In this document: one piece after another, positions 7,524 to 50,964 of the stretch | How the letters are laid out: every line of letters starts with the position of its first letter | How positions within the stretch are numbered: position 1 is the stretch's first letter | From: Alphaproteobacteria bacterium | Lineage (GTDB): Bacteria > Pseudomonadota > Alphaproteobacteria > Rickettsiales > VGDC01 | Direction of reading: 5' to 3' | NCBI GenBank assembly: GCA_022450665.1 | Contig: JAKUPQ010000003.1 | Span: 5,054 to 63,782 of the forward strand | Length of the DNA: 58,729 nucleotides | Notes under the pieces: model-generated | What the model was told of the DNA's origin: nothing | Databases searched by the model: none | What the model saw: the letters and a program-made list of their open reading frames with translations, nothing else | Translations under genes and position numbers: made by a program

Positions 7524-7554
7524 GGGGGAGTTGCATTGCAGCTCCCCTCTTTTT
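7524..7554 (+). terminator. Rho-independent terminator after flgH
   Basis: GGGGAG (7525-7530) pairs with CTCCCC (7542-7547), with a further inner TGC/GCA pairing and a three-base loop. A T-rich tract runs to 7554. This closes the flgF-flgG-flgA-flgH operon and separates it from the repeat-module gene cluster. Confidence 0.85.
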
Positions 7555-7700: not shown

Positions 7701-8504
7701 ATGTCTGAAGAAACCAACGGAAAGCCTGAGAGTATTGAACAAAACCCTACGGCAGCGGATAATTATAGTTATAAAGATGGACAGCTTCAGGTTGATGGCA
7801 AGCCATGCCCAGCGGTTTTAATAACAGATGATAAAAGAGGCACAGTTTTTGTTTTAAGTGCTACAGAGATTGATGGCGAAACGGGAGAAGTCGTAGACGC
7901 ATCTCTGAGTTCGAAACCCTCATTACACGCAAAGCAAACGGCTGAAGTTGTTCCTTCCAGCGTGCTGCCTGAAGAGGTGCGCAAAAAAGCAAGCGCGATG
8001 TGGCAAGAAGCCACTGCAAATGCCTCGGAGCAAGGCGCCCCCCCCATTGCCCCTGAGGTGATTGAAAACTTTGAAAATGGTGAGCGCAGCCTCAAAGCTC
8101 CTGACCCTCAACAGCGCCGTATCAATAGTGAGTTTCGTAATATTACACGAAAGTTTGACTATGATGCAGGGCTTACAAAACTTACTGCGGAGGAAACATT
8201 TAATGTATTATATGATGCGATTGAGAATGCTACTACACCTGAAGCAAAAGCCGCAGCCGAGAAAAGACTTGTAGAATATACTACGCCTAACGAAGAAGGG
8301 GTAACCCAACAACATGAAATTGCTGAAGCGGCGGAACAGTTTGGTAAGCCTATCGGACATTACACCCGTGATGCAGCCGAAGAAAAAATCGCCCCTGACG
8401 TTGCTGCTGGCACTCAACAAGAAGATAGCCATATTGCAAGGCTTAAAGCAAAGATAGCGGCAGAAGAGGCAGAAGCCAAAGAGGATAAAGGACCTAGCCG
8501 TTAA
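7701..8504 (+). CDS. Repeat-module protein 1 (unrecognised family, one module)
   Basis: I do not recognise this 267-residue acidic protein. It has no signal peptide or membrane segment. Residues about 38-134 form a module shared with four other genes in this window: a strand-rich part (PAVLITDDKRGTVFVLSA, then DGETGEVVDASL) followed by a helical part (LPEEVRKKASAMW, then IAPEVIENFENGERSLKAP). The C-terminal region is helical and charged (HIARLKAKIAAEEAEA) and ends in a basic residue after a polar tail. The start has a good AAGGA site. It is the first of four tandem paralogs that probably share a transcript ending at the 11.9 kb terminator. Function is unknown; location in a flagellar region is the only hint. 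Confidence 0.75.
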   Translation: MSEETNGKPESIEQNPTAADNYSYKDGQLQVDGKPCPAVLITDDKRGTVFVLSATEIDGETGEVVDASLSSKPSLHAKQTAEVVPSSVLPEEVRKKASAMWQEATANASEQGAPPIAPEVIENFENGERSLKAPDPQQRRINSEFRNITRKFDYDAGLTKLTAEETFNVLYDAIENATTPEAKAAAEKRLVEYTTPNEEGVTQQHEIAEAAEQFGKPIGHYTRDAAEEKIAPDVAAGTQQEDSHIARLKAKIAAEEAEAKEDKGPSR

Positions 8505-8570
8505 TAATGTATGTAACACAGCAAATCATCTGTAAGCCAATATTGCCAATGATATGTCAGGAAATATTAA

Positions 8571-8589
8571 TGCCCCTATTGGGCGGTGC
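8571..8589 (+). promoter_or_regulatory. Duplicated 19-bp hairpin element (copy 2)
   Basis: This is an identical copy of the 19 bases at 7636-7654, here 23 bases before the start of repeat-module gene 2. The following ribosome-binding region AAGGATTGAT is also shared between both genes, so the whole 5' region was probably duplicated with the gene or kept by selection. Confidence 0.55.
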
Positions 8590-8612
8590 GTATTTTGAAC
8601 AAGGATTGATAC

Positions 8613-9995
8613 ATGTCGGAAGAAGTAAATGATGCTATATCAGTAGATTCTAAGGTGGCTAATTATAACTACCTCCTACAGTCATGCAAAGAGGAAGGTA
8701 TTGAATACCCTGGCGTTGTCATCACTGATATGGATAATGATACAACCTATATTCTGGCGGCGAATCAGAAGGATTCAGAAACGGGTGAAATCACAAATGC
8801 AGCTTTTTATTGTTTTGAAGAGCGTAGTTATACCTCCCCTGACAGATTGCCATCCGAAGTGCGTGAAGAAGTAAGCGCTTTATGGCAAAAATCCATTGAT
8901 GAAGCGGTGGGAGACCATGAAATTGCGCCGATTGCTCAGGAAGTTGTTGAAAACTTTGTGGCAGGAAAAGAAAATCTTGAAGCTCCGCCTGCTGCAATTC
9001 GTGTGGGTAACAATCTAGTTCGTGGTGTCTTGGATATACCAAATAGCGAAAAGCAAATAGGTAAGGAATTAGACGAGTTAACGTTGCAAGATAAAATGGA
9101 CAGCCATAAGCGCAGAGTTGATTTATCTCTTGATACTGAAGATCCTTCTGGTGCATTCCAACCACTTGTTTCGGATGAAGAAATTCATTCTTTAATGGAG
9201 GCGGGCGCAGAGGCGTATAAAGCAATAGACCCCGTAACCGCACAGCGCGCTGAGGATGCGGCGATTGGCAATGCGGCTAAGGTGTTAAAAAATGTTCAAT
9301 CCCCTTCAGAGCAGCAAAGTATTGCTGTTGAGACAGAAAAAGGTCAGACATATACCATCCATCAGGCTTCTGATAGATCTGCGATAGAAGTGACTTCGGA
9401 GTCAGAACTTGATCGTTATGTAACCAGAGGAAAATTAACCTATAATGGCGATGAAATAAGTGAAAGCCTCGCGCAAGAGCTGCCTTTAGCGGAGCTGGAT
9501 AAAGTAGCTATTACCGGATTGTCGCTGCATTTTAAGCATAAAGATCAGGCGCTTGATGGTAAGCATTCTTTGATAAATACTCCTAAAGAAGTGCGCGAAG
9601 CGGTGGCGAAGCAATATAGCGAGATGATGGAAGAAAAAGGCTTTTCGGTTGTGCCTGAAGTTTTGGAGCGGTTTAAAGAGGGCAAGCGTAACGGGGCGCA
9701 GGCTTCCGAGGCAGAAGTTGATGAGCATATAGCGCGTAAATTAGAAGAGCAAATAATGCGCAAAATTATTGTGAGACAAAATAGGCAAAACCCCGATATG
9801 CAGGAGAACCCCATAACCGTCTCTGAATTAGGGGAGCAGAGCGAAAATGATGTGTCTAGTCTTTACGGCGATAAAGAGCTTATTTATAAAACAATTGTAG
9901 CTGAAGATAGAAAGTCTGAGCCGAATTTTGCAGAGCAAATTGAAGCGCTCCGCAAACAGGCACTACAAGATAATAGTAAGGGTAGAGATAGATAG
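8613..9995 (+). CDS. Repeat-module protein 2 (two modules)
   Basis: This is the largest member of the unrecognised family, with 460 residues and no signal peptide. Module A (about residues 33-125) is the closest match to protein 1: PGVVITDMDNDTTYILAA, DSETGEITNAAF, LPSEVREEVSALW, APIAQEVVENFVAGKENLEAP. Module B (about 245-362) is more divergent: TYTIHQASD, TPKEVREAVAKQYSEMMEEKG, VVPEVLERFKEGK. After module B comes a charged helix DEHIARKLEEQIMRK similar to one in protein 1, and the protein ends NSKGRDR. Its N-terminus (MSEEVND) also resembles that of protein 1. No function is assigned. Confidence 0.75.
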   Translation: MSEEVNDAISVDSKVANYNYLLQSCKEEGIEYPGVVITDMDNDTTYILAANQKDSETGEITNAAFYCFEERSYTSPDRLPSEVREEVSALWQKSIDEAVGDHEIAPIAQEVVENFVAGKENLEAPPAAIRVGNNLVRGVLDIPNSEKQIGKELDELTLQDKMDSHKRRVDLSLDTEDPSGAFQPLVSDEEIHSLMEAGAEAYKAIDPVTAQRAEDAAIGNAAKVLKNVQSPSEQQSIAVETEKGQTYTIHQASDRSAIEVTSESELDRYVTRGKLTYNGDEISESLAQELPLAELDKVAITGLSLHFKHKDQALDGKHSLINTPKEVREAVAKQYSEMMEEKGFSVVPEVLERFKEGKRNGAQASEAEVDEHIARKLEEQIMRKIIVRQNRQNPDMQENPITVSELGEQSENDVSSLYGDKELIYKTIVAEDRKSEPNFAEQIEALRKQALQDNSKGRDR

Positions 9996-10040
9996 CTCTA
10001 CGCCATCAATAACATACACAGGTAATTAAAAGGATACGCA

Positions 10041-11144
10041 GTGTCAGACACACCTTCGGAAAAATCTAATTCAAGCGAGATGCGTATTCAGGTAGGTGAA
10101 GATCAAACCTATGTGTTAACCACCGAGATAGCTACGCAGCTGCCGGGCGCGAGAAATGCGCATATTCCGTTGGTTACGCTTCATGCGGAAGGCGTTGATG
10201 CATTGCAAGGCTCATATAAAACAGCGCTGAGAATTGCTGAGCCTTTCGATGAACCGGAGCTGTCAGAGGAGCAACAAAGCAAGATACAAAAACCCGAAAT
10301 ATGCGGGATAGAATTTACTTCGCAAACGCCGCAAAACCCCACCTCTTTGGAGGATGAAACAGCGCTGGTGATTGAAAATACTCCGAAAGAGGTGCGTGAC
10401 GCTATTGCAAATATATTTGAAAAAAATGCAGAAGATTATCAGATTGCCGATGGTTTGATGCAGAAAGTTCGCACAGGCGAAATGCCGTTGCAGGCGTTTG
10501 ATTCTGATCTGAGTGATGGGCTGGTGGCTACGCTGACTGTCAATAACCAGCATTATGGGCTGGCGCGGGGTTTTAGGGATGTGGCAGATGATGTTAACCC
10601 TGAACTTATTGAAGGTTTGGAAGCGATAGATATAAGAAATACCATTATAGTACGCGATGTTAGCGGAGAAGATTTATATCAATGTTCGGGTATTGTGTGC
10701 GATGTTAATGGAAAAGAAGTTATTCAGGCAGAGCTGGTGCCGCCCCATGACTCTCCTAAGTTGGTTACTGATATGACCGTGCAGGAAATAGTGGATGATG
10801 TCGCCCTTGAAGAAGCATATGAAATCAGTAAACTCAACCCCATGTTGCGCGATGCCATAGCCACTACATATGAAGAATATATGGCGCAAGACGGTGTGGA
10901 AGTGGTGCCGCAGGTACTGCAACGATTCCGCGACGGAGAATCAGATTTGGCGGCAAAACCCAAAGAATTGGCAAAGATTAAACAAGAAGCCGAAAAAAAA
11001 GCGCAAGAAGCTGATCCAAACTATTGGCAAGATTTAATGAATGCAGAACTTACAAAACCAAATAGAGATGGACAAGTTGTGGAAGGATATTTGAAGAAGC
11101 TGCGCGAAACTCGCGGCGATGATCCACGAGAACGCGGCATATAA
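10041..11144 (+). CDS. Repeat-module protein 3 (two modules)
   Basis: This is a third family member of 367 residues, starting at GTG 10041 behind AAAAGGA. The helical half of the module is seen twice: residues about 113-153 (NTPKEVRDAIANIFEKN, then ADGLMQKVRTGEMPLQAF) and 265-306 (LNPMLRDAIATTYEEYMAQDG, VVPQVLQRFRDGESDLAAKP). The strand-rich halves before them are strongly diverged. The C-terminus is a charged helix ending DDPRERGI. There is no signal peptide or membrane segment. It follows protein 2 by 45 bases and is probably in the same operon. Confidence 0.72.
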   Translation: MSDTPSEKSNSSEMRIQVGEDQTYVLTTEIATQLPGARNAHIPLVTLHAEGVDALQGSYKTALRIAEPFDEPELSEEQQSKIQKPEICGIEFTSQTPQNPTSLEDETALVIENTPKEVRDAIANIFEKNAEDYQIADGLMQKVRTGEMPLQAFDSDLSDGLVATLTVNNQHYGLARGFRDVADDVNPELIEGLEAIDIRNTIIVRDVSGEDLYQCSGIVCDVNGKEVIQAELVPPHDSPKLVTDMTVQEIVDDVALEEAYEISKLNPMLRDAIATTYEEYMAQDGVEVVPQVLQRFRDGESDLAAKPKELAKIKQEAEKKAQEADPNYWQDLMNAELTKPNRDGQVVEGYLKKLRETRGDDPRERGI

Positions 11145-11169
11145 TTTTAGGCTAAAAGAGGATGATAGT

Positions 11170-11868
11170 ATGGCAGTAGCCGCACCTATAGTACCAAGAG
11201 TTAAAGGTAATTTTAGCCATGACGGTCAGGAATGGGTGTCGTTGGAGTTGTCCGATTCCAAAAATGGCGGCGATAAATTTTATCCCGCTATTGTTGAAAA
11301 AGATACGAAGCAAGCGTTGTATCTCGATCCGCAAATTGATAGCGCGAGTAATACAGTGACGGGTGCACGGCTAATGCGTAAATCGGCAGAAGGTGAATTT
11401 AGTGAAGTGCCGCTGGATACGATAGATGCCCCCTTGCGTGAAATTTTAGCAACATCGCTAGAATCCTCGGCAAAATCAGCGGGTCATAATGTTGAGGCTG
11501 AAGTGCCACAGGCGATCAGACAAGGCGTTGACCTGAAAAAAGAACGGGCTATCGACGCGCAGGTAAAAGATGAAACGCGGAACTTTGACCCAGATTTAGT
11601 GCTGGCGCAGATGATGCGTAATGAAACAAGTGCCCAAGTACGAGTGGAAACGAATTGCGACGGCGCCCCTCATCCTCATACGCAAGAATTGCTTAGCAGG
11701 CGGCAAGAGGCTGTTGCAGCAGCTTTAGATGATTCCCCCTCTCGCATGGCTGAGCGGCTAATAAATGAAGTGGGCACCTTTCTTCGGGATTCAGATTCAC
11801 CATCAGCAGATGGCTTTGCCGAAGGCGTCAGGCGTTCTCAAGCTCCTTCATCAGAACGTGAGCGTTAG
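11170..11868 (+). CDS. Repeat-module protein 4 (one module)
   Basis: I chose the ATG at 11170 (232 residues) because AGAGGA stands eight bases before it; an earlier in-frame ATG at 11119 lies inside the preceding gene and lacks a site. Residues about 38-124 carry the module: FYPAIVEKDTKQALYLDPQ, TVTGARLM, DAPLREILATSLESS, EVPQAIRQGVDLKKE. The rest is helical and polar, and the tail ends SSERER. It is the last gene of the four-gene cluster and is followed by a terminator. Confidence 0.72.
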   Translation: MAVAAPIVPRVKGNFSHDGQEWVSLELSDSKNGGDKFYPAIVEKDTKQALYLDPQIDSASNTVTGARLMRKSAEGEFSEVPLDTIDAPLREILATSLESSAKSAGHNVEAEVPQAIRQGVDLKKERAIDAQVKDETRNFDPDLVLAQMMRNETSAQVRVETNCDGAPHPHTQELLSRRQEAVAAALDDSPSRMAERLINEVGTFLRDSDSPSADGFAEGVRRSQAPSSERER

Positions 11869-44366: not shown

Positions 44367-45434
44367 TTAGCGTGAGTGGCCGGGATTGGGATCTTGCTCA
44401 TTATAAGGCGTAGAACCATTTCCGATTCTTTCCCCCCAACTTGTATCTGTTTTAGCCAGAGCTTTTTCCAATTCTTTAAGCTGTGCTGAAAAACCACCTA
44501 CTATATTGTCTTCTTGCTCTGTATCACGAGCACGTTTAGGGGCTTGTTCTCCCGTTATAGCTGCTAGGCCATTATCTATATCCTGCTGCGATACTGCGCG
44601 TTCGCCTAATATGACTTCGCGTGTATCCTCAGTTAACTCAAAGCCTGGGAGTTCAGTATATTTCTCCATTTTATTGTGTAGCTCTTTACGAACATTATCA
44701 GGAAGTTCGCTGATATTTGCTTCGCTGATCTCATCATGTGTAATTTTAGTGAGAGAGAAACCATTTACGGTGCCTTGCTTGTTTTCGATATCCGCTAATT
44801 CTACTTTATAAACGGTGTCGGTAGAAAAATCATCCACTTGGAAACTCAGTTCCAGACCATTTTTTTGTGCTGTAGCGGTGGTAGAAACCTGCCATTCAGG
44901 ACCGGTGCGCGATGTATTTGCTGGTGGAGTATGGTCTTCCTCCTCATTTACTAATGGGGTTGACGGGGGAAGTATGTCTTTATTTTGAACTGGATCCAGT
45001 AAATCATCTACGGACAGGTTGCTTGCCCCTATAAAATATTCTTGTGCTTGGTCGCTTAAAGTAGCACCCGCTTGATTGAGCCGCGCTTTAGTAATTTCAA
45101 GCAATCCTGTGCGAATTTCATCGGGTAAATCCACATCTAATGGATCCACATCTGTTACAGCAGTAATATGTTCCTGAGTTTCTTGGTCGTTATGTGCCAT
45201 TGGCTGGGTTAGCAGATCTATTGTATTATATTGTTGTGTTTTCTCGTCAAAACCATCTAGATGCGCCCAATAATATTTATCATTTTTGCTATCGTAGGCG
45301 GCGGCGTTAATGCTTAGATAATCGCCGCGAGAAAAAACGGCTTCACCGATTTCCCAGTTTTCTTTAGCGTCAGTTTGTAGATAATCTTCATAGACTTCTA
45401 AGTTGCTCGGCACAGCATTAAATTGTTCAGTCAT
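44367..45434 (-). CDS. Repeat-module protein 5 (two modules)
   Basis: This is an isolated fifth member of the unrecognised family, 33 kb from the other four. The 355-residue protein has no signal peptide. Module A (about residues 48-141): AYDSKNDKYYWAHLDGFDEK, LPDEIRTGLLEITKARLNQAG, DQAQEYFIGASNL. Module B (about 199-281): QVDDFSTDTVYKVELADIENK, ELPDNVRKELHNKMEKYTEL, EDTREVILGERAV. The tail ends DPNPGHSR. AAGGA precedes the start. It converges on clpA and lies next to the ppa terminator. Confidence 0.75.
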   Translation of the reverse strand: MTEQFNAVPSNLEVYEDYLQTDAKENWEIGEAVFSRGDYLSINAAAYDSKNDKYYWAHLDGFDEKTQQYNTIDLLTQPMAHNDQETQEHITAVTDVDPLDVDLPDEIRTGLLEITKARLNQAGATLSDQAQEYFIGASNLSVDDLLDPVQNKDILPPSTPLVNEEEDHTPPANTSRTGPEWQVSTTATAQKNGLELSFQVDDFSTDTVYKVELADIENKQGTVNGFSLTKITHDEISEANISELPDNVRKELHNKMEKYTELPGFELTEDTREVILGERAVSQQDIDNGLAAITGEQAPKRARDTEQEDNIVGGFSAQLKELEKALAKTDTSWGERIGNGSTPYNEQDPNPGHSR

Positions 45435-46527: not shown

Positions 46528-47445
46528 TTACTTAATGGAGAAAATCAGGGCGCATCCATTTTGCTTTTCGTTCACACTATAGTCAAGCTGGGTAGTGTAG
46601 CCTGCACCATTGGGATCGGAGGCTTCAAAGCAATCGGCCACGGTATTGGCATCGGCAGCGTAATCTCCTGCGGCAATAATACTACCGCTGGCAGGGAGGC
46701 CATCATCGAATTTATTATCTAACGAATCGGCATCCTGAGGAGGAATGATAGGCTGCATGGCATAATATCCTTCATATTGCGCCCCTAAAACCAATACATT
46801 GCCATAGTTAATTTCGGTAAATATCCACACATTATCGGCGGCAATAAAACGACACATGCCTTTGGTAAAACCGCCGCTGGCACTTATGCTGCGGCATGTG
46901 CCTGTGGCTTCGGTGCTATGGGGAATGTTAAGGATGCTCCAGCCTGCAGCTTTGTTGTAGTTTGAGCGTGGGATGTTGGTGCCAACCACTGCATCACGAT
47001 CGCTTGCAGCGCCGGGAACGCCAGTAACTTCGGCACGCAGCAAACCCATATTATGCAAGTGGTTCCATGCATAAAAACCTTCAGCTTCTTCGCCGCTTAA
47101 TCCTAGGGTTGTAGTGGTGGGAGCAATGAGCTGATTGCCGTTCCCGTTGCAGGTTTCGGTGCCTACGCCAGCATCATCAGGGCAGGTGTCGCCGCTGTTA
47201 GTGTCGCCTACTGCGCCCCAGATATACTCGGCATTATTCATGTCGCCGGGTAGTGCGTGAAAGCGCTCTTGAAATGCGGCAATAGCCGTACGGTATTCAT
47301 TCACTTCGGTGTTAATGGATTTTAACTCCATCGAGCGAATAAGATTTGCCCCTGCGAAAATCCCTCCGGTAAGTAATCCTAAAATTACTAAAACTACGGA
47401 AATTTCTAAAAGGGTGAATCCTGAACGTGATGTAGCGTTATGCAT
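46528..47445 (-). CDS. Pseudopilin-like protein 3
   Basis: This 305-residue paralog has the processing site SG|FTLLEISVVLVILGLLTGG, then ERFHALPGDMNNAEYIWGA and FYAWNHLHNMGLLRAEVTGV. The C-terminal part has paired cysteines. It is the third gene of the minus-strand unit pseudopilin 5-4-3, with a 12-base gap from pseudopilin 4. Confidence 0.85.
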   Translation of the reverse strand: MHNATSRSGFTLLEISVVLVILGLLTGGIFAGANLIRSMELKSINTEVNEYRTAIAAFQERFHALPGDMNNAEYIWGAVGDTNSGDTCPDDAGVGTETCNGNGNQLIAPTTTTLGLSGEEAEGFYAWNHLHNMGLLRAEVTGVPGAASDRDAVVGTNIPRSNYNKAAGWSILNIPHSTEATGTCRSISASGGFTKGMCRFIAADNVWIFTEINYGNVLVLGAQYEGYYAMQPIIPPQDADSLDNKFDDGLPASGSIIAAGDYAADANTVADCFEASDPNGAGYTTQLDYSVNEKQNGCALIFSIK

Positions 47446-47457
47446 AAGAAGCTTCGT

Positions 47458-48315
47458 TTAAAAGGCGTTGTAAAAAATGGGTGTACACACCGCCTGATCC
47501 ATATCAGCGTTGACGACATAATCAGCATCTCCACTAACCATTGCAGTAGCGACTGATATTTCATAAAACGCCGTGCCTGGTGTACCTAAAATGCTAGCGT
47601 CTGTGCAATTGGGGTTGCCAAATAAATTGACGCGTAAAATACCTTTTAGAGGCTTGCCATCATCTATTTTAATATCTATTCCCAAAGTATCTGCTGCGGA
47701 GATGATAGGATTAATACCATCGCTATCCGGTTCCCCACTATACTCTAACGTGCGGCTAGACATGCCGACATAAGACCAATCTGACCCAGAAGAAAAGTAA
47801 ACTAATTGTCCATACGTGCCAAATAACCAGCGGGCGCTGCCAATTTTACCTTCAGGCACATTTTGACCAACGATTTGTGTTAACCCATCATTCAGGCCGC
47901 TATATGTTCCATCTACTAGCCCTGCATTGCTCAAATGCTGCCATGCCAATAATGTTTCGTTGATTGCATCGCCGCTTACATCATATTTTTCATAAACGCC
48001 GTTACCATTACCACTACATGTGGCCGACATGGATGTGTCGGCGCCACTGCATGCGGTGGAGATGCCCCAATTATCGGTGGCTGTTGCGTGATCGCCCGGA
48101 TAGGCGTTGTAACGGGTTGTATAGCTATTAACCATGGCAACGTATTTTTCTTTTTCGTTTACAATGGAACGCAGTTCATAACTATGAAGCAGTGATTGGC
48201 CCGCGAAAATGCCACCAGCAACTAAGCCGAGAATTACCAGCACGATAGAAATTTCAACCAGAGTAAAGCCATGTTGAAATTGCGGATTGCGTATGGATGT
48301 TGTTGTTGGTTGCAT
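47458..48315 (-). CDS. Pseudopilin-like protein 4
   Basis: This 285-residue paralog has the processing site HG|FTLVEISIVLVILGLVAGG, then TTRYNAYPGDHATATDNWG and LLAWQHLSNAGLVDGTYSGL. Its start codon overlaps the stop of pseudopilin 5 by one base (TAATG), showing translational coupling. Confidence 0.85.
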   Translation of the reverse strand: MQPTTTSIRNPQFQHGFTLVEISIVLVILGLVAGGIFAGQSLLHSYELRSIVNEKEKYVAMVNSYTTRYNAYPGDHATATDNWGISTACSGADTSMSATCSGNGNGVYEKYDVSGDAINETLLAWQHLSNAGLVDGTYSGLNDGLTQIVGQNVPEGKIGSARWLFGTYGQLVYFSSGSDWSYVGMSSRTLEYSGEPDSDGINPIISAADTLGIDIKIDDGKPLKGILRVNLFGNPNCTDASILGTPGTAFYEISVATAMVSGDADYVVNADMDQAVCTPIFYNAF

Positions 48316-49118
48316 TAGCGGCCTACAATGTTTTTAAATATTATTGTGCAGGTAGGCGTTTCTAATCCTTGCGTATAAGTTGCGGTATCCGTGTCGCTAT
48401 TGATTGCAGAAACGTTACGTGCGGTCGCACAGCCGCCCAGTTGGGTTACAATATTCCCTTTGCCTGCCATGCCGTCGTCGTATTTTTCGTCAAGGGAACG
48501 CATTTCGGCTGGATATAATATGCTAGTGAATACAGCACTATCGCCTAGTGCAGATTGTGAAGGGTTAATGCCTAATACCAATATATGGCCATAACGGGCG
48601 TTGAAAAATGCGCTGCTTCCCGAAACGTTGCCTACCGAATCGCCCAGCCAAAATAATCCCCATTTTCCGGTGGGTATATCAGATTGTGGCTCATCATTCA
48701 CCCCATTGAACTTGCCTTTAATCAGCTCAGCATTGCTTAGATGCTGCCATATGCGATACCGCTCGGCCTCTTGACCCACAGGGCCAATTTTGCCATCAGC
48801 ATTACCATCACAAGTAGCTTTGCCGGTTTCGGCCACGGCGCAACTTGCCGCAGCACCCCATAATTCGGTGGCGCGGCGAAAATCGCCGGGTTTGGCAGAA
48901 AAGCGATCGGTAAATTGTGTGATTGCGGCATCGAAGGTGTTTTTTTCTTCGATCATGTTTTTGATGCGGGTAGAGCGGATTAAGTCGCGCCCTACTAAAA
49001 CACCACCTGCGATTACGCCAATGATAACCAGCACAATGGAAAGCTCCACCAGTGTGAAGCCTCGTTGTTGTGGCTTAGATGAATAAGGCGTTGTGGCTGT
49101 CAATAGTGTATTAACCAT
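48315..49118 (-). CDS. Pseudopilin-like protein 5
   Basis: This 267-residue paralog has the processing site RG|FTLVELSIVLVIIGVIAGG, then TDRFSAKPGDFRRATELWG and YRIWQHLSNAELIKGKFNGV. It is first in the three-pseudopilin operon and diverges from the protease gene; the 104-base gap between them should hold both promoters. No clear ribosome-binding site is visible. Confidence 0.84.
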   Translation of the reverse strand: MVNTLLTATTPYSSKPQQRGFTLVELSIVLVIIGVIAGGVLVGRDLIRSTRIKNMIEEKNTFDAAITQFTDRFSAKPGDFRRATELWGAAASCAVAETGKATCDGNADGKIGPVGQEAERYRIWQHLSNAELIKGKFNGVNDEPQSDIPTGKWGLFWLGDSVGNVSGSSAFFNARYGHILVLGINPSQSALGDSAVFTSILYPAEMRSLDEKYDDGMAGKGNIVTQLGGCATARNVSAINSDTDTATYTQGLETPTCTIIFKNIVGR

Positions 49119-49984: not shown

Positions 49985-50106
49985 CGTCACTAAAGTTTCA
50001 CATACAAGCACTTGAGTACGTTAGCCTATGTACTTATACTTGGGCGCATATTAAACACTGGCAGTATTGTATAATGCTGCTGATTTACAGGTGAGATCAA
50101 TATTTG

Positions 50107-50964
50107 ATGCAGGATAAATTCACAGATAACGCAGCCCTATTAGCGGTTGAGGCTATTGACAACAACGACGTCGAAGCAATTAATCAATTGTTTGAGCAAG
50201 GTATGCATCCCGATTTGTTATTGGGCGAGGGGGTTAAGAAAACTCTTGGCGCGACATTGGCCGTGAAATTGGACGATCCCGCCATATTTAATAGCTATGT
50301 AGAGCATGGCGCAAATCTGGATCATTATAGCGGTGCGGCGGATACTAATCCGCTGCATGCCAGTGTGTTAAATAACGATATTCGCGGTGTAGATCGTGCG
50401 TTGGCTGCCGGAACAAATGTTGCCAAAACCAAAGTTATGCAAGGCTTGGTGAATAATGCCGCGCCTGAGGGAGAGGTGCTATCGCATGTGATTGATGGCG
50501 GTGGATGGAAGGCGCTTGATGTAGAAAAAGGTGTGCATAACAAGGTGTCGGATCGTTTAACACAGGCAATTGCTAATAGTGAAGAGGCAGGAAACCACGC
50601 ACGGGTAGAAAGTTTAAGCAATATTCTCGAGGTGGTAGAATCTTATGAAACTATGCCGCGTATTCAGATAGATGAGCATTTAACAAAAGCGGTATTGTTT
50701 GAAAAAGACGATAAAGGACAAACGCCTTTATCGCATCCCGAACCTTGGGCGCGGTGGAAAGAAGTTACTGCGCAATTAGCAGAAAATGGGGAGGCTATGA
50801 CACATGAAGATTTGCAGCAAGACGTAGGCAACGGTAAAACCGGATTGCAACGCGCTGCAGAATGCTTTGTGCAGCCAGAGGCCGAAATTGCTGATAAAGC
50901 AACAAGTTGGGCGAGAAGAACACAGCAAGCTGCACCCACTAGTCGCGGTTCATCACTTGCCTGA
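50107..50964 (+). CDS. Ankyrin-repeat-like protein
   Basis: The 285-residue protein has ankyrin-like helices in its first half: AVEAIDNNDVEAINQLFEQG, YVEHGANLDHY, and NPLHASVLNNDIRGVDRALAAG. No signal peptide is visible. The second half is helical and lacks repeats. The tail TQQAAPTSRGSSLA is polar. AGGTGAGA lies upstream of the ATG (a TTG one codon earlier is also possible). Protein-protein binding is the likely role; the partner is unknown. Confidence 0.65.
   Translation: MQDKFTDNAALLAVEAIDNNDVEAINQLFEQGMHPDLLLGEGVKKTLGATLAVKLDDPAIFNSYVEHGANLDHYSGAADTNPLHASVLNNDIRGVDRALAAGTNVAKTKVMQGLVNNAAPEGEVLSHVIDGGGWKALDVEKGVHNKVSDRLTQAIANSEEAGNHARVESLSNILEVVESYETMPRIQIDEHLTKAVLFEKDDKGQTPLSHPEPWARWKEVTAQLAENGEAMTHEDLQQDVGNGKTGLQRAAECFVQPEAEIADKATSWARRTQQAAPTSRGSSLA

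What the first reader, a model, noticed from the sequence alone, without database searches (positions are those of the whole stretch)
7701..11868. Unrecognised repeat-module protein family in an operon inside the flagellar region
Four tandem genes (7701, 8613, 10041, 11170) and a fifth at 44367-45434 share a module of about 90-110 residues: a strand-rich half (xAVxITDxxxxTxYIL, then DxETGEVxxAxL) and a helical half (LPxEVRxxxxxxxx, then xxPEVxExFxxGxxxLxAxP). I count eight copies: one in proteins 1 and 4, two in 2, 3 and 5. None has a signal peptide. All are acidic and soluble, and all end in a short polar tail that is Arg-rich or ends in Arg in four of five. I know no named domain with this pattern. 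Four genes lie between the flgH terminator and dksA/fliX. Possible roles are export substrates, chaperones or binding scaffolds; none is shown.
Basis: partly seen in the sequence, partly recalled or inferred. Interest (0 to 1): 0.85.

Follow-up and report, generated by a model that had tools for sequence, protein, structure and literature searches.

The report
Orphan family of probable secreted proteins
Five related genes in a free-living cousin of the typhus bacteria encode a protein family that no database knows, and their tails resemble those of toxins and proteases in the same organisms, so they are probably cargo of a protein-secreting machine rather than flagellar parts.

Summary
P1-P4 (7701-11868) and P5 (44367-45434) form one divergent family with no match in Pfam, NCBIfam, PHROGs, PADLOC, PDB, phages, plasmids or viral contigs. 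A module is predicted as six antiparallel strands plus a helix (pLDDT 85). The family occurs only in the window's genome and one sister-genus lake MAG (344 genomes of the order; scan of 84,980 species). There, three tandem relatives again follow flgH; two lie elsewhere. The order behaves as Rickettsiales; both genomes carry two VirB4 genes (rvh-type T4SS).

The new lead is the C-terminus: an aromatic-xx-[RKQ]-aliphatic stretch and a polar tail, usually ending in Arg. Similar tails end metalloproteases, a lipase-like protein and a GH-E nuclease beside a SUFU immunity gene, the last in both genera. Best explanation: secreted effectors, probably of the rvh T4SS (confidence about 0.5). The tail evidence is suggestive, not proven; one strict held-out test failed. 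A flagellar role is not supported.

The parts
7701..8504 (+). P1, 267 aa: module (about 7761-8126), helical C-terminal domain, tail SHIARLKAKI...KGPSR (8430-8501)
8613..9995 (+). P2, 460 aa: two modules (about 8661-8975 and 9333-9725), tail NFAEQIEALR...KGRDR (9924-9992)
10041..11144 (+). P3, 367 aa, GTG start: one module (about 10527-10982), a helical half only at about 10368-10472, tail GYLKKLRETR...RERGI
11170..11868 (+). P4, 232 aa: one module (about 11197-11529; predicted fold for 11185-11484), tail GFAEGVRRSQAPSSERER
44367..45434 (-). P5, 355 aa: one clear module (about 44574-44921), first module not confirmed, tail SWGERI...GHSR (44370-44441)
7524..7548 (+). terminator-like hairpin between flgH and P1

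Best explanation
P1-P5 are a lineage-restricted, fast-diverging family of soluble effector proteins built from a six-strand-plus-helix module, a helical C-terminal region and a short C-terminal export tail. They are made in the cytoplasm without a signal peptide. The tail (an aromatic residue, then xx[RKQ] and an aliphatic residue, then a polar stretch usually ending in Arg) is read by the coupling ATPase of the cell's rvh-type type IV secretion system, which passes them to another cell, a rival bacterium or a protist. Shown: the family, its modules, a predicted fold, its restriction to two genera, and VirB4 pairs in both genomes. Inferred: that the tail is a signal, that the T4SS reads it, and the target cell. 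The activity of the module is unknown; its repeated, variable, tandem form suggests that it binds a target protein.
For: Family confined to two genera and strongly diverged between them, as tandem paralogs. Tails of P/Q proteins resemble tails of reprolysin/M10-like and M48-like proteases and of a lipase-like protein in these genomes. A profile trained on P/Q tails alone ranked the GH-E nuclease second of 671 and first of 514 ORFs before its nature was known; it lies beside a SUFU immunity gene in both genera, a listed toxin/immunity pairing (PMC3482391), and is the only GH-E protein in 301 genomes of the order. Protease homologs of the window's genome, chosen by domain, carry NWTDRV and PFATRI tails (top 0.9% and 2.6%; combined P over six homologs 0.019). 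Both genomes have two VirB4 genes, and the window's genome has VirB2-B11/D4-like genes in order. C-terminal tails of RalF and RARP-2 bind RvhD4 (PMC11077975).
Against: The tail profile is not enriched at C-termini overall. The strict pattern fixed before sample 3 found 0 of 16. Likeness tests are partly circular and some patterns were refined after looking. P3 ends in Ile and several tail-bearing proteins do not end in Arg. A DEAD-box helicase and an oxidoreductase also fit the pattern, so it is not specific. Nothing links the tail to the T4SS rather than to another exporter.
Confidence: 0.48

Rival explanations
1. The same proteins are secreted by a type I system (ABC transporter, adaptor and TolC), whose substrates also carry an uncleaved C-terminal signal with an amphipathic helix and are typically acidic (own knowledge).
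For: All five are acidic. The tail is C-terminal and uncleaved. Tail-bearing proteases resemble serralysin-type proteins with repeat-like glycine/aspartate segments.
Against: P1-P5 have no GGxGxD repeats in their sequences. No type I genes were seen in the stretches around the protease cluster, though the genome was not searched for them. The tail lacks the hydrophobic DxxV ending of serralysins.
Confidence: 0.2
2. The proteins stay in the cytoplasm and act as adaptors or binding proteins with lineage-specific housekeeping or regulatory roles; the tail likeness is chance plus shared composition.
For: The tail statistics are weak in several tests. The module is a small beta-alpha unit that could bind proteins. 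No activity is recognised.
Against: The blind ranking of the GH-E nuclease in both genera and the tails of protease homologs chosen by domain are hard to explain by chance. Divergence to about 30% between sister genera is unusual for housekeeping proteins: ClpA is 87% identical between the same genomes.
Confidence: 0.24
3. The proteins are flagellar export substrates, chaperones or regulators.
For: Four genes lie between flgH and dksA/fliX; Q1-Q3 also follow flgH in the sister genus.
Against: Flagellated relatives of other families have no family member there; in one, dksA and fliX follow flgH directly. A terminator-like hairpin separates flgH from P1. P5, Q4 and Q6 lie away from flagellar genes. 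No match to a flagellar family.
Confidence: 0.06

Closest known systems
rvh type IV secretion effectors of Rickettsiales (RalF, RARP-2, Pat1/2)
   Same: Soluble, no signal peptide, C-terminal tail as the likely recognition site; same order with a two-VirB4 T4SS
   Different: No sequence or domain relation; binding to RvhD4 not tested; basal lineage without ATP/ADP translocase
Bacteria-killing T4SS effectors of Xanthomonadales (X-Tfes, XVIPCD)
   Same: Modular cargo with a shared C-terminal recognition region; toxin/immunity pairs (PMC6536674)
   Different: Their XVIPCD is a domain of about 120 residues with a Gln-rich end; here the shared part is about 25 residues, and Pfam gave no XVIPCD match
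Polymorphic toxin/immunity systems (Tox-GHE with Imm-SuFu)
   Same: A GH-E nuclease beside SUFU in both genera ends in the same kind of tail
   Different: P1-P5 have no recognised toxin domain and no recognised immunity neighbour
Polo-box fold
   Same: Same order of elements: six antiparallel strands then a helix, also found in tandem
   Different: Best Foldseek E 0.08, TM-score 0.34: not significant; no homology claimed

Membership tests
rvh T4SS substrates | genome encodes an rvh-type T4SS | tested here: met
   two VirB4 per genome; VirB2-B11/D4-like genes in order by sequence
rvh T4SS substrates | C-terminal signal shared with other cargo | tested here: inconclusive
   supporting; against:
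rvh T4SS substrates | binding to RvhD4 and T4SS-dependent delivery | not testable with these tools
   needs experiment
X-T4SS effectors (XVIPCD) | C-terminal XVIPCD domain | tested here: not met
   no match in Pfam scans at E up to 1
Polymorphic toxins | recognised toxin domain and immunity neighbour | tested here: not met
   for P1-P5; met for the GH-E protein only
Type I (RTX) substrates | GGxGxD repeats | tested here: not met
   absent from the translations
Type I (RTX) substrates | linked or dedicated type I exporter | not tested
   no genome-wide search was made
Flagellar proteins | match to a flagellar family, or presence beside flgH in flagellated relatives | tested here: not met
Polo-box fold | significant structural match | tested here: not met
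   E 0.08, TMq 0.34

The most novel reading that the evidence does not exclude
A previously undescribed short C-terminal translocation signal marks the cargo of the rvh type IV system in a basal, free-living Rickettsiales family: a nuclease with an immunity gene, metalloproteases, a lipase-like protein and the orphan P/Q module proteins. It would be a first cargo list for the system before it was turned on eukaryotic hosts.
Probability: 0.33. Interest if true: 0.82.

Novelty: new variant of a known kind. Interest (0 to 1): 0.6.

Why it matters
Free-living basal Rickettsiales carry the rvh T4SS, and published work could assign no verified effector to it and suggested bacteria killing or defence against protists (PMC9352585). 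A tail shared by an immunity-paired nuclease, proteases and an orphan family would give testable cargo and show how the ancestral system worked. The family itself adds an unrecognised small module.

Tried and rejected
Known-domain explanation: no hits in Pfam, NCBIfam, PHROGs, PADLOC or PDB. Phage or plasmid origin: no match in viral contigs, phages or plasmids. Flagellar role: see rivals. Fold assignment with the two-module model and the single module, PDB and viral libraries: nothing significant. A degraded-copy reading of Q6 (a stop inside the match) was dropped: the frame simply ends there and Q6 is a short intact protein. Strict tail pattern on a third sample: negative. A second tail class (LxxLxQQ[LM]RPxxxxGIGR) on LRR- and ankyrin-like proteins of the sister MAG was not pursued.

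Full report
What is there. P1-P4 are spaced by 108, 45 and 25 bases, each with a GGAT-type ribosome site, after a terminator-like hairpin that separates them from flgH; they look like one operon. P5 lies alone between clpA and the pyrophosphatase gene (those two names are mine, from sequence). All are acidic (pI 4.27-4.87) and hydrophilic, and no N-terminal hydrophobic stretch is visible.

Homology. P1-P2 and P2-P3 are linked directly (E 5e-18 and 4e-8). Leave-one-out profiles recognise the module in P1, P2, P4 and P5 far above shuffled sequences, and P3 as a whole at 17.5 bits. The first modules claimed in P3 and P5 are helical halves only. So the window holds six modules plus two doubtful halves.

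Distribution. A module profile finds the family in two of 344 genomes of the order with real scores; three other hits at E 0.005-0.006 look like noise. A profile of the C-terminal region finds only the window's genome among 385 genomes of the class, and a scan of 84,980 species finds only one sister-genus MAG, Alphaproteobacteria bacterium M_DeepCast_400m_m1_040. In that MAG flgH is followed by Q1, Q2 and Q3 up to a contig end; Q4 ends another contig beside a D-Ala-D-Ala carboxypeptidase-like gene, and Q6, which has the C-terminal domain but no module, lies beside a malate synthase-like gene. P1 shares the helical C-terminal domain with Q2, Q3, Q4 and Q6, with 15 invariant columns. In other families flgH is followed by other genes; in one it is followed directly by dksA and fliX. 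Between the two genera ClpA is 87% identical while P1's best relative is 36%.

Structure. Q2 is predicted as two modules of six strands and a helix followed by helices (mean pLDDT 72.9). The P4 module, with 12 aligned modules, is predicted well (pLDDT 85, pTM 0.70). The order of elements is that of a polo box and polo boxes top the PDB list, but E is 0.08 and TM 0.34, so this is a resemblance of topology only.

Organism. Finished genomes of 1.2-2.0 Mb in one genus of the order carry five ATP/ADP translocases each, as Rickettsia does (own knowledge), while the window's family has none. Both genomes of the window's family have two VirB4 genes, and the window's genome has several VirB6-like genes in tandem and VirB8-B11 and D4-like genes in order (named by sequence and order, not by profile). 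This fits a basal, free-living Rickettsiales lineage; such lineages are reported to have flagella and an rvh T4SS without the translocase (PMC9352585). The order's name was inferred, not read from a record.

The tails. P and Q proteins end in related short stretches: SWGERI...GHSR (P5), NFAEQIEALR...GRDR (P2), SHIARLKAKI...GPSR (P1), SWAQKAID...APSR (Q1), GHLERLKFER...RFSR (Q2). Unrelated proteins of the sister MAG end alike: four tandem reprolysin/M10-like proteins (SWTDRV, SHVEALRARV, TFAGRI, TWKERV; their Pfam protease matches are below the curated cut-offs), an M48 protease (GHFARRVLREREQA...SPSR) and a weaker M48-like protein. A profile trained only on P/Q tails ranked a protein of the window's genome second of 671 non-family ORFs and one of the sister MAG first of 514 ORFs in a second sample. 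Afterwards both proved to be GH-E nuclease plus exonuclease proteins, each beside a SUFU gene; they are the only GH-E proteins found in 301 genomes of the order. Tox-GHE with Imm-SuFu is a listed toxin/immunity pair (PMC3482391).

Tests of the tail. Against: the profile is not enriched at C-termini in general, its top scores in single samples are near chance, and a strict pattern fixed before a third sample found 0 of 16 Arg-ending ORFs. For: in that third sample the top profile hit ends SFASRVQAQKQLAASKEYGNARG; in the second sample the strict pattern found 4 against 0.32 expected in the sister MAG, but it had been refined after looking at that sample, and two of the four are a helicase and an oxidoreductase. 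Protease homologs picked by domain and not by tail gave a combined P of 0.019 and, with a simple pattern written after seeing them, 3 of 6 against a 4.7% background, P 0.002. A profile from non-family tails ranked eight of nine family proteins in the top 65 of 1342, but those tails had partly been chosen by likeness to the family, so this is partly circular. I judge the signal probable but unproven.

Mechanism. The most likely course is cytoplasmic synthesis, recognition of the C-terminal tail by a secretion ATPase (RvhD4, by analogy with RalF and RARP-2; PMC11077975) and delivery outside the cell. Restriction to two genera, tandem copies and strong divergence fit effectors aimed at varying targets. 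A type I exporter remains a real alternative, and a purely cytoplasmic role is not excluded.

Noticed in passing
window 50104-50964 (+): A 286-aa protein that looks ankyrin-like, without Pfam match, ends ATSWARRTQQAAPTSRGSSLA, a tail of the same look as the P family.
   Followed up: partly
L127:7263-9410 and L188:6261-8208: GH-E plus exonuclease protein with an adjacent SUFU gene in both genera: a probable toxin/immunity pair.
   Followed up: partly
L144:4220-12759: Four tandem reprolysin/M10-like proteins of 586-734 aa in the sister MAG, with homologs on three contigs of the window's genome.
   Followed up: partly
L134:14300-18282, L147:4403-8589, L152:6696-10574: Tandem LRR- and ankyrin-like proteins of the sister MAG sharing a second tail class, LxxLxQQ[LM]RPxxxxGIGR.
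   Followed up: no
L184:141-3765: Three tandem orphan genes ending RFASVVAGAQKSHGSQVGR, RFADKLSQQRRQPEGGFPSR and SHVQAVTQQREQAQHQSLSV.
   Followed up: no
window 46528-49118 (-): Three neighbouring proteins with the prepilin N-methylation motif.
   Followed up: no
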